Assembly (NCBI RefSeq): GCF_002252445.1 | Contig: NZ_NNRJ01000019.1 | Span: 1 to 64,000 of the forward strand | Direction: 5' to 3' | Origin: Brucella thiophenivorans | GTDB taxonomy: Bacteria > Pseudomonadota > Alphaproteobacteria > Rhizobiales > Rhizobiaceae | Length of the DNA stretch: 64,000 nt | Position numbers and translations under genes: made by a program | Shown: positions 29,080 to 30,800 of the stretch, in pieces | Layout of the letters: every line of letters starts with the position of its first letter | How positions within the stretch are numbered: the first letter of the stretch is position 1 | Notes under the pieces: model-generated | Databases searched by the model: none | What the model was told of the DNA's origin: nothing | The model's input: only the letters and a program-made list of their open reading frames with translations

Positions 29080-29108
29080 TTGACGGCTGTCGTTGCTATG
29101 AGGATAAG
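29080..29108 (+). promoter_or_regulatory. Putative promoter of the cysS leader
   Basis: TTGACG at 29080-29085 and GATAAG at 29103-29108 are 17 bases apart. Transcription would begin near 29115, at or next to the leader-peptide ATG, so the message could be leaderless. The -10 match is moderate. Confidence 0.45.
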
Positions 29109-29115
29109 TAACGCC

Positions 29116-29166
29116 ATGAAAACGTTGACCACGATCATCTGTACCGGTTCGATTATTATTGGCTAG
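29116..29166 (+). CDS. Putative attenuator leader peptide upstream of cysS
   Basis: A 16-codon frame reading MKTLTTIICTGSIIIG then TAG. Four threonines and five isoleucines out of 16 residues, with three consecutive Ile codons (29152-29160) just before the stop, recall the enteric thr and ilv leader peptides. The stop codon lies inside the first arm of a hairpin, and further alternative hairpins follow (separate entry). A GAGGA at 29100-29104 could be a ribosome binding site if transcription starts further upstream. Confidence 0.55.
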   Translation: MKTLTTIICTGSIIIG

Positions 29167-29247
29167 CAGCTTGCTGGCCCGGCCGTTTTCGTCTCCCTTA
29201 AAATAAAACAGGATGATAACGCCCCGGCCAGACGGCTGCGGTCTTTT
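29161..29247 (+). promoter_or_regulatory. Putative transcription attenuator before cysS
   Basis: Segment 1 (29161-29168, GGCTAGCA) pairs with segment 2 (29172-29179, TGCTGGCC), eight pairs with one G-T. Segment 2 extended (29174-29182, CTGGCCCGG) can instead pair with segment 3 (29224-29231, CCGGCCAG), eight pairs with one bulge. Segment 3 can instead pair with segment 4 (29234-29241, GGCTGCGG), six pairs with a two-base bulge, followed by TCTTTT: a terminator. This is the textbook 1:2, 2:3, 3:4 layout. A ribosome stalled on the Ile codons would cover segment 1 and favour 2:3, allowing readthrough into cysS at 29283. Confidence 0.55.
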
Positions 29248-29282
29248 GTGCCCGTATTTTCAGGTCTTTTTGGGGAATAAAA

Positions 29283-30800
29283 ATGGCTGATGCGCCGCAA
29301 CTACGTCTTTACAACACCGCGACCCGCACGAAGGAGGATTTTGTCCCCATCGATGCGAATAACGTGCGGATGTATGTCTGCGGACCGACTGTTTATGACT
29401 TTGCCCATATCGGCAATGCGCGGCCTGTGATCGTCTTTGATGTGCTGTTTCGGCTGCTGCGTCATGTCTACGGCGACAACAAGGTCACATATGCGCGCAA
29501 TATTACGGATGTTGACGATAAGATTAACGCGCGTGCGGCAAGCGAATATCCCGATCTTCCACTCAATGATGCAATCGGTCGTGTGACCCAAGGTACCAAC
29601 AACCAGTTTCAGTCTGACATCAAAGCGCTGGCTAATATAGAGCCATCAAGCCAGCCTCGTGCGACCGAGCATCTGGATGACATGCGCGATATTATCGAAA
29701 AACTGATCGAGCGCGGCGTGGCCTATGTTGCCGATGAACATGTGCTTTTCTCGCCGTCTGCGATGAATGCCTTGGGCGGAGCACGCTATGGCGCACTTTC
29801 TCACCGCCCATTTGATGAGATGCTGGCCGGAGCTCGTGTTGATGTGGCTTCCTACAAGCGCGACGAAATGGATTTCGTGCTCTGGAAACCATCGCGCAAT
29901 GGCGAACCGGGCTGGCCATCGCCTGCGGGGATTGAGACGCTTGGCCGTCCCGGTTGGCACATCGAATGCTCGGCCATGTCGATGGCCAAGCTGCTGGCGC
30001 CGTTTGGCGGCGGTTTGAAATGCGACGATCCTTATAAGAACCAGTTCGACATTCATGGCGGCGGCATCGATTTAGTGTTCCCACACCATGAGAACGAGCT
30101 TGCACAGTCATGCAGTGCGTTCAACACCGAGCGCATGGCCAATATCTGGATGCACAATGGCTTTCTGCAGGTCGAAGGCCAGAAAATGTCCAAATCGCTT
30201 GGCAATTTCATCACCATTCGTGATGTGTTGAATGACGGTCTTCCACAGCTTGGCCCTTGGGATGATAAGGACGCGCGCGACCGCTGGGTTGGGCTGGCGG
30301 CGCGTTTCTCGATGCTGCAAACCCATTATCGCGAGCCGATCAACTGGACCGCGCAACGTCTGGCAGAATCTGCTGAAGAACTGCGTCGCTGGTATGGAGT
30401 GTTACGCGATGCAGACTTTAAAGCACCTTCCGAGCTTTTGAAGGCAGGTGAAGTCGAAGAAGCGCTATCGGATGATCTCAATACCTGGATTGCGATCACG
30501 GTTCTGCGTAGGGCATTCAAAGCGAATGACATTTTGGCTTTGGGTGAAGGCATGGCGCTGTTGGGCCTGTTTGATCCGTATTTTGTGACGACGCAGGACG
30601 TGCCGGTCTTTGTCAAATCAGACGTTGACTCGGCGCAAATCGAAGCGCGGATAGCCGAGCGTCTACGCGTCATTGCGGACAAAAACTGGGCTGAAGCGGA
30701 CCGCATCCGTGATGAGCTTTTGGCTGAGGGTGTGCAGTTGCAGGACGGCAAAGACCCTGCCACCGGCGAACGTATCACAACCTGGGATGTGGTAAGCTAA
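29283..30800 (+). CDS. cysS: Cysteinyl-tRNA synthetase
   Basis: 505 residues. The enzyme charges tRNA-Cys. The class I HIGH motif is in CGPTVYDFAHIGNARP near 31-46, the zinc site includes Cys31 and the GWHIECSAM region, and KMSKS is exact (GQKMSKSLGN). Length is typical of alphaproteobacterial CysRS, slightly longer than the E. coli enzyme. The start is 36 bases after the terminator-like hairpin. The GFA-family gene follows 26 bases later, so cysS, that gene and cimA probably form one transcript. Confidence 0.96.
   Translation: MADAPQLRLYNTATRTKEDFVPIDANNVRMYVCGPTVYDFAHIGNARPVIVFDVLFRLLRHVYGDNKVTYARNITDVDDKINARAASEYPDLPLNDAIGRVTQGTNNQFQSDIKALANIEPSSQPRATEHLDDMRDIIEKLIERGVAYVADEHVLFSPSAMNALGGARYGALSHRPFDEMLAGARVDVASYKRDEMDFVLWKPSRNGEPGWPSPAGIETLGRPGWHIECSAMSMAKLLAPFGGGLKCDDPYKNQFDIHGGGIDLVFPHHENELAQSCSAFNTERMANIWMHNGFLQVEGQKMSKSLGNFITIRDVLNDGLPQLGPWDDKDARDRWVGLAARFSMLQTHYREPINWTAQRLAESAEELRRWYGVLRDADFKAPSELLKAGEVEEALSDDLNTWIAITVLRRAFKANDILALGEGMALLGLFDPYFVTTQDVPVFVKSDVDSAQIEARIAERLRVIADKNWAEADRIRDELLAEGVQLQDGKDPATGERITTWDVVS

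What the first reader, a model, noticed from the sequence alone, without database searches (positions are those of the whole stretch)
29080..29283. Complete attenuator-like leader upstream of cysS, with an Ile/Thr-rich peptide
Seen: a 16-codon frame with four Thr and five Ile codons, three Ile in a row right before its stop. The stop lies in arm 1 of a 1:2 hairpin (29161-29179). Arm 2 can alternatively pair with arm 3 (29174-29182 with 29224-29231). Arm 3 can alternatively pair with arm 4 to make a hairpin followed by TCTTTT (29224-29247). Known: enteric thr and ilv leaders work this way, and the Rhizobium trp leader is translated from the very 5' end of its message. Inferred: Ile starvation stalls the ribosome over arm 1 and opens transcription of cysS, the GFA gene and cimA. 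CimA supplies the isoleucine precursor 2-oxobutanoate, so the logic fits. cysS as first gene is unexpected; the lone Cys codon (29140) is badly placed to cover arm 1.
Basis: partly seen in the sequence, partly recalled or inferred. Interest (0 to 1): 0.8.

Follow-up and report, generated by a model that had tools for sequence, protein, structure and literature searches.

The report
Isoleucine-and-cysteine leader peptide before cysS-cimA
A tiny peptide gene rich in isoleucine and cysteine codons, followed by RNA hairpins that exclude each other, precedes the cysteine-tRNA ligase and isoleucine-precursor genes in many rhizobia and their relatives, and probably lets a stalled ribosome switch these genes on when either amino acid runs short.

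Summary
The leader is real. Peptide, start-at-AUG promoter, and 1:2 and 2:3 hairpins are conserved: 35 of 35 genus genomes, 214 of 397 order genomes by covariance model. cysS follows in 40 of 40 order loci fetched, cimA in 38; two contigs end first. A DNA pattern holding no peptide codon found 119 related loci; all 119 have two or more Ile and a Cys codon in frame before the stop. Both helices show compensatory changes, with caveats.

The terminator at 29224-29247 is not conserved; hiding of the cysS ribosome-binding site is modestly supported in short leaders and not settled for the window.

In 102 genomes leader and cimA tally 83 both, 13 neither, 6 cimA only, 0 leader only, from few independent events. 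A prediction written beforehand held in 16 of 17. Closest known: the cysteine-only uORFC-8-2 of Rhodobacterales. No expression data were seen; stalling and dual sensing are inferred.

The parts
29080..29108 (+). promoter: TTGACG (29080-29085), 17 nt, GATAAG (29103-29108)
   Evidence: sequence; TTGAC at the same distance from the leader ATG in 36 of 39 family leaders; also in most rows of the genus alignment that reach that far
29116..29166 (+). leader peptide MKTLTTIICTGSIIIG with stop TAG; candidate control codons Ile x5 and Cys x1 (29140-29142)
   Evidence: 35 of 35 genus leaders have Ile at codon -3 and a Cys codon
29161..29168 (+). arm 1 (GGCTAGCA, holds the stop codon)
   Evidence: 1:2 core helix 99.1% paired in 68 sequences, two of five pairs with changes on both sides
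29172..29187 (+). arm 2 (TGCTGGCC, then CGG and CGTT)
   Evidence: alternative partner of arm 1 or arm 3
29218..29231 (+). arm 3 (AACG CCCCGGCCAG)
   Evidence: 2:3 helix 84.3% paired in 68 sequences, 9 of 13 pairs with changes on both sides
29234..29238 (+). proposed arm 4 (GGCTG), partner of 29225-29229; weak, following T run not conserved
29272..29276 (+). cysS ribosome-binding site (GGGGA), candidate target of sequestering
29283..30800 (+). cysS, cysteine--tRNA ligase
   Evidence: TIGR00435, 391.8 bits
30827..31300 (+). GFA-domain protein
   Evidence: PF04828, 80.1 bits
31475..33088 (+). cimA, citramalate synthase (isoleucine precursor)
   Evidence: TIGR00977, 599.2 bits

Best explanation
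It is a ribosome-mediated attenuator for the cysS-cimA gene group, read out through a leader peptide with two kinds of control codon, Ile and Cys. The message starts at or next to the AUG, so a ribosome follows RNA polymerase at once. If charged tRNA-Ile (and, I infer, tRNA-Cys) is scarce, the ribosome stalls on the last Ile/Cys codons and covers arm 1. Arm 2 then pairs with arm 3, and cysS expression proceeds. If both are plentiful, the ribosome reaches the stop codon inside arm 1. Its footprint then covers the start of arm 2, or 1:2 re-forms after release. Arm 3 is left free to pair downstream and lower expression: in short-leader genera with GGCC..GGGG over the cysS ribosome-binding site, and in some species perhaps as a terminator. 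Shown by comparison: peptide, codon content, gene order, conservation, paired changes in 1:2 and 2:3. Inferred: stalling, direction of control, output step, dual sensing.
For: Found in 35/35 genus genomes and by covariance model in 214/397 order genomes at E<=0.01. cysS follows in 40/40 fetched order loci, cimA in 38; among 119 pattern-found loci cysS in 114/114 and cimA in 18/18 with enough DNA held. Control codons: >=2 Ile and >=1 Cys in the last 11 codons in 119/119 (many near-identical relatives) and 39/39 (in frame Ile 40%, Cys 16%; other frames at most 0.5% and 2.1%). Their order varies (ICGICIIG, ICICAIIIG, IIICG, ICICWIIIR) while the content stays, which fits codon demand. Ile at codon -3 in 103/105. 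2:3 helix: 84.3% of cells paired against at most 49.5% when slid, 0/500 shuffles on five measures. 1:2 core: 99.1% paired, 2/5 pairs changed on both sides, 0/500. Leader and cimA: 83 both, 13 neither, 6 cimA only, 0 leader only; prediction held in 16/17.
Against: No RNA, translation or starvation data. Output step weak: the window's T run is not conserved; binding-site pairing to arm 3 is 0.46 vs 0.34 for shuffled arm 3, 9 of 37 individually at p<=0.05; the site is more open stalled than at the stop in 33 of 90 leaders, reverse in 11, but the untranslated RNA is as open as the stalled one (mean 0.37 vs 0.36; stalled more open in 22, less in 27), against the model at equilibrium. The window RNA alone folds into the 2:3 form, so the off state must be kinetic. 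Slid by -1, the 2:3 structure gives as many both-sided changes (9 pairs, 22 cells), and on the narrower seed only 2 of 13 pairs changed. Many Cys codons lie at -6 to -9, where a stall would not reach arm 1. cimA begins 1.5-3.6 kb past cysS in the 14 genomes, so one transcript is not assured. Six genomes and G167 have cimA without a detected leader. The cimA state changes only 5 times on the tree; sign test p 0.25.
Confidence: 0.75

Rival explanations
1. The same attenuator senses isoleucine only; the Cys codons are kept for another reason (RNA pairing, spacing, history), and cysS is along for the ride.
For: Ile at codon -3 is near-universal (103/105), where a stall covers arm 1, while Cys codons are often at -6 to -9. 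In all 18 genomes without cimA whose cysS upstream was read, within the order, no leader was seen although cysS stays (13, 4, G039).
Against: Cys is the second most frequent residue (16% of the last 11 codons against 2.1% and 0.2% in the other frames) and its place varies (at -2 in 12 of 39 order leaders), which a fixed RNA role would not predict.
Confidence: 0.22
2. The peptide itself acts: either as an arrest peptide in the exit tunnel or as a trans-acting small protein, as claimed for the S. meliloti Trp leader peptide.
For: Strong amino-acid conservation inside a genus; peTrpL is a precedent in this order (PMC7298713, abstract seen in a search listing only).
Against: Across genera the sequence is permuted while Ile and Cys codon content is kept, which fits codon demand better than a fixed arrest motif.
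Confidence: 0.08
3. A conserved 5' untranslated hairpin (stability or processing element) with an incidental short frame.
For: The 2:3 helix is in the best fold of the window leader and is kept across the order.
Against: 119/119 leaders found by RNA letters alone carry Ile and Cys codons in the frame of the stop; promoter spacing fits translation from the 5' end in 36 of 39.
Confidence: 0.03

Closest known systems
uORFC-8-2 motif (Brewer et al. 2021, PMC8632094; section 24 read; first author recalled)
   Same: upstream of cysS in Alphaproteobacteria, short frame with Cys codons, proposed ribosome-mediated attenuation
   Different: reported only in Rhodobacterales, two tandem Cys codons usually at positions 14-15, a U run at the 3' end, no Ile codons mentioned in the section read; here Rhizobiales, Ile and Cys codons, no U run kept in the genus, other arms
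Enteric thr and ilv leaders (recalled)
   Same: one leader peptide with control codons for more than one amino acid; mutually exclusive hairpins
   Different: those amino acids share a pathway and the operons are biosynthetic; here Ile and Cys are joined by a gene group with a tRNA ligase and a synthase
Rhizobial trpL/trpE leader, leaderless rnTrpL (PMC10117765, passages seen)
   Same: same order, small leaderless message starting with the AUG, attenuator leader
   Different: Trp codons (recalled), trpE target; no comparison of sequence was made here
T-box leaders of cysS in Firmicutes (recalled)
   Same: senses tRNA charging before cysS
   Different: no T-box or other Rfam 15 family matches the leader

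Membership tests
ribosome-mediated leader-peptide attenuator | short frame with clustered codons for an amino acid tied to the downstream genes | tested here: met
   119/119 with Ile and Cys codons in frame; cysS and cimA downstream; that it is translated was not tested
ribosome-mediated leader-peptide attenuator | mutually exclusive helices overlapping the end of the frame | tested here: met
   1:2 and 2:3 share arm 2; both are kept and show changes on both sides of pairs, though the slid control equals the both-sided counts
ribosome-mediated leader-peptide attenuator | output helix: intrinsic terminator or sequestered ribosome-binding site | tested here: inconclusive
   T run not conserved; sequestering modestly supported in short leaders
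ribosome-mediated leader-peptide attenuator | expression changes with amino-acid supply | not testable with these tools
   needs expression data
uORFC-8-2 motif | tandem Cys codons at positions 14-15 | tested here: not met
   the window has one Cys codon, at position 9; the commonest peptide, MKTSFAICGICIIG (35 of 119), has no tandem Cys
uORFC-8-2 motif | U run ending the motif | tested here: not met
   not kept in the genus alignment
T-box or other Rfam family | covariance model match | tested here: not met
   no match to the leader in window 20000-40000 at E<=5, none to the leaders of 15 relatives at E<=1

The most novel reading that the evidence does not exclude
One leader works as a two-input device: the late Ile codons (-2 to -4) free cysS-cimA by covering arm 1, while the Cys codons, often further upstream, act at a different ribosome position and so give a different, possibly opposite or gating, response, so that Cys and Ile supply are balanced by one RNA; the released leader RNA or peptide might also act in trans, as claimed for the rhizobial Trp leader.
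Probability: 0.25. Interest if true: 0.78.

Novelty: new variant of a known kind. Interest (0 to 1): 0.62.

Why it matters
A regulatory leader spread through the order, without a match in Rfam 15 in our searches, appears to couple a tRNA ligase and a biosynthetic enzyme of an unrelated amino acid through one peptide whose codons match both. It offers a natural test of codon-demand sensing: codon order is shuffled between genera while content is kept, and in all 18 genomes of the order without cimA that were looked at no leader was seen. It may also explain why cysS and cimA stay close together in many Alphaproteobacteria.

Tried and rejected
Conserved intrinsic terminator at 29224-29247: rejected as a conserved part. 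Ribosome-binding-site sequestering as a general output: equilibrium folding gave only modest support. Rfam membership: none. A second copy of the leader in the window's genome: none seen, one match only. Thr as control codon: not kept outside the genus. Naming by plasmid records gave one distant Shinella record without annotation at the site. Tree-corrected association of leader with cimA: right direction, not significant. My first stop-codon picker took an earlier overlapping stop in some loci; corrected. One search used too narrow an arm pattern; corrected.

Full report
What is there. The frame 29116-29166 reads MKTLTTIICTGSIIIG and ends in TAG. A promoter-like TTGACG (29080-29085), 17 nt, GATAAG (29103-29108) places the transcript start at or within a few bases of the ATG. 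Arm 1 (GGCTAGCA, 29161-29168) holds the stop codon and pairs with TGCTGGCC (29172-29179). Arm 2 can instead pair with 29220-29231, extended by CGTT (29184-29187) with AACG (29218-29221). Folded alone the leader is more stable than shuffles (z -2.50 for 29115-29282; -2.62 for 29115-29250), and its best structure contains the 2:3 helix. Downstream are cysS (TIGR00435), a GFA-domain protein (PF04828) and cimA (TIGR00977). A simple scan flagged no promoter or terminator in 30700-31600, between cysS and cimA.

Conservation in the genus. The leader DNA is found in 35 of 35 genomes of the genus, and the alignment of 35 leaders shows nearly invariant hairpin arms (L031, L062 and L063 have a longer 3' part and are cut at the 5' side there). 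The peptide varies as MKTPTT(I/N)IC(T/I)(G/C)(S/A)IIIG and the like; all 35 have Ile at codon -3 and all have a Cys codon.

Spread. CysS was found in 198 of 199 family genomes. The model R1 (37 sequences chosen with CTAGC at the stop, so the 1:2 core in that seed is invariant by construction; L050 and three long-leader rows were left out) found 214 of 397 order genomes at E<=0.01, all but G412, G441 and G523 with one match; about four chance matches would be expected at that limit, and E-values of the model are rough. In 289 genomes drawn from the class it found 17, the window and one other order member included; apart from the window only four were below 1e-4, and one of these, G713, lies on another contig than its cysS, so it is not shown to be a cysS leader. 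I fetched 40 order loci. cysS follows the leader in 40 of 40 and cimA follows within 4.2 kb in 38; the other two contigs end too early. In 39 of these 40 the peptide start was present (L143 is cut by the contig end), and 39 of 39 have two or more Ile and 38 of 39 one or more Cys in the last 11 codons; L127 has no Cys. R1 includes the peptide end, so this set is biased. Two sets are not. First, 39 of 60 family cysS loci picked by RNA letters alone: 39 of 39 have both codons (that pattern misses some leaders, for example L078, L080, L258 and L267). Titled bearers include Rhizobium leguminosarum, R. phaseoli, Mesorhizobium loti, Agrobacterium vitis, Phyllobacterium, Falsochrobactrum and Brucella species.

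Codon logic. Ile and Cys make up 40% and 16% of the last 11 codons in frame, against at most 0.5% and 2.1% in the other frames. The order of the residues differs between groups (ICICAIIIG, ICGICIIG, VICIICGKIIR, ICICWIIIR, IIICG) while the content stays, which fits sensing of charged tRNA rather than a fixed arrest peptide. Ile at codon -3 is present in 103 of 105 leaders (this set required at least three Ile/Cys codons). By the usual ribosome footprint (recalled, about 15 bases beyond the first base of the P-site codon), a stall at codons -2 to -3 covers arm 1. Arm 2 starts about 8-12 bases after the stop, inside the reach of a ribosome waiting at the stop (the raw counts include spurious 4-5 values from a loose pattern). 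Cys is at -2 in 12 of 39 order leaders but at -4 to -9 in many others, so its part in the mechanism is less clear.

Covariation. On alignment A3 (68 of the 77 sources; nine left out, mostly near-duplicates) the 2:3 helix is 84.3% paired, with changes on both sides in 9 of 13 pairs and 22 cells; no shuffle of 500 reaches the observed value on any of five measures. The slid control is mixed: paired cells (at most 49.5%) and the covariation score (at most 0.096 against 0.170) fall, but a slide of -1 gives the same 9 pairs and 22 cells with both-sided changes. The 1:2 core helix is 99.1% paired, with both-sided changes in 2 of 5 pairs (3 cells), 0 of 500 shuffles for paired cells, changes and covariation score, 8 of 500 for pair types; one slid version (-2) has a higher covariation score, 0.074 against 0.047, with few cells paired. 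On the narrower seed the 2:3 evidence is thinner (2 of 13 pairs, 80 of 500 shuffles reach that) and 1:2 is invariant. Related rows inflate such scores.

Output step. In short-leader genera the bases after arm 3 (for example GGCC AGCA GGCC A GGGG before the cysS start) can pair with arm 3 and hide the ribosome-binding site. Pairing of that site with arm 3 averages 0.46 against 0.34 for shuffled arm 3, 9 of 37 individually at p<=0.05. With the ribosome modelled as stalled rather than at the stop, the site is more open by over 0.1 in 33 of 90 leaders and less open in 11; but the untranslated RNA is on average as open as the stalled one (0.37 and 0.36; stalled more open in 22, less in 27), which the model would not predict at equilibrium. 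This is modest support. A terminator may act in some species (one leader, L059, has six T after the hairpin). For the window I leave the output open.

Leader and cimA. In 80 of 141 class cysS loci read (two of them cut short by contig ends, L207 and L211), the clear Ile/Cys leaders are all in genomes with cysS-cimA adjacency: 6 of 40 linked, 0 of 20 with cimA elsewhere, 0 of 20 without cimA (read by eye, four further linked loci doubtful). Of 20 order genomes without a model match (20 of the 183 such), 19 have a CysS match: of the five without cimA none has a leader by my reading (L043 has a GTG-started Ile/Cys-rich frame ending in CTAGC but no arm 2, perhaps a remnant), while 7 of the 14 others have a diverged Ile/Cys leader missed by the model. 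I then wrote down leader status for 17 family genomes before looking for cimA: 12 of 12 leader-bearing genomes have cimA, and 4 of 5 leaderless ones have none at 1e-60; G167 is the exception. In 11 of the 12 cimA lies, whole or in part, within about 4 kb of cysS on the same contig; G068 is split by a contig break, and in G143 only part of cimA was seen, on another contig, so its linkage cannot be told. On 102 genomes (of 107 CysS proteins, five of unknown state dropped; the set is, but for the shared genome G213, not in it) the tally is 83 with both, 13 with neither, 6 with cimA only, none with leader only. The tree shows only 5 changes of cimA state and 10 of leader state, and 3 supported independent pairs; the leader goes the same way in 2.8 on average, sign test p 0.25. 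So the link is consistent but rests on few events.

What is in print. The nearest description is uORFC-8-2 before cysS in Rhodobacterales (PMC8632094, section 24 read; the only paper with that name in the library): tandem Cys codons, terminator U run, no Ile mentioned. Searches for cysS or cysteinyl-tRNA synthetase with leader peptide, attenuation or attenuator, cimA, Sinorhizobium, for citramalate synthase with leader peptide, and for leader peptide with isoleucine, cysteine and Rhizobium (two searches listed 20 of 58 and 15 of 26 papers) showed no description of this leader in the listings; only open-licence papers are searched. PMC1273637 mentions an ilvB leader peptide of Alphaproteobacteria (passages). 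PMC10117765 (S. meliloti small proteins) and PMC2965389 (premature terminators) do not hold the word cysS in their main text. Vitreschak et al. 2004, a survey of proteobacterial attenuators, is not held, so prior mention there cannot be excluded.

Verdict. A new variant of ribosome-mediated attenuation: a near-leaderless Ile/Cys leader for cysS-cimA, widespread in Rhizobiales. The architecture is well supported by comparison; stalling, dual sensing and the output step are inference.

Noticed in passing
window 31326-31527: The 5' end of cimA is duplicated: a 53-base repeat (94%) starts a roughly 49-codon mini-frame whose TGA overlaps the ATGATG of full cimA, with a 17-base perfect inverted repeat (31435-31451 and 31519-31535). 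A related insert is in L034, L325 (Brucella grignonensis) and L340 (B. pituitosa); only one cimA start was seen in L033 and L035-L038.
   Followed up: partly
window 28671-28779: Match to Rfam Brucella sRNA BASRCI27 (44.2 bits, below its gathering score of 59.8), overlapping the end of the SRAP gene and upstream of the leader.
   Followed up: no
L071 (G070), about 118 bases before cysS; L043 (G124), about 137 bases before cysS: In two genomes without cimA a short frame ends in CTAGC (MCTIAPFEFRGVCG; VCLLISIIAIFLCYIRC with a GTG start) without arm 2: possible decayed leaders or chance.
   Followed up: no
G733 and G836 (class, outside the order): Both have a leader match at 1.4e-8; in G733 it reads MKTAATIWCICCTIIIS before linked cysS-cimA: vertical or transferred is open.
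   Followed up: no
G713:C28:3646-3740: A leader-model match at 1.0e-5 on another contig than the genome's cysS: chance, or a leader before another gene.
   Followed up: no
NZ_CP069303.1 (L407): A 4.6 Mb Shinella record filed as a plasmid, with only two annotated features, holds a stretch like the leader (79.1% over 40% of the query); it may be a mislabelled chromosome.
   Followed up: no
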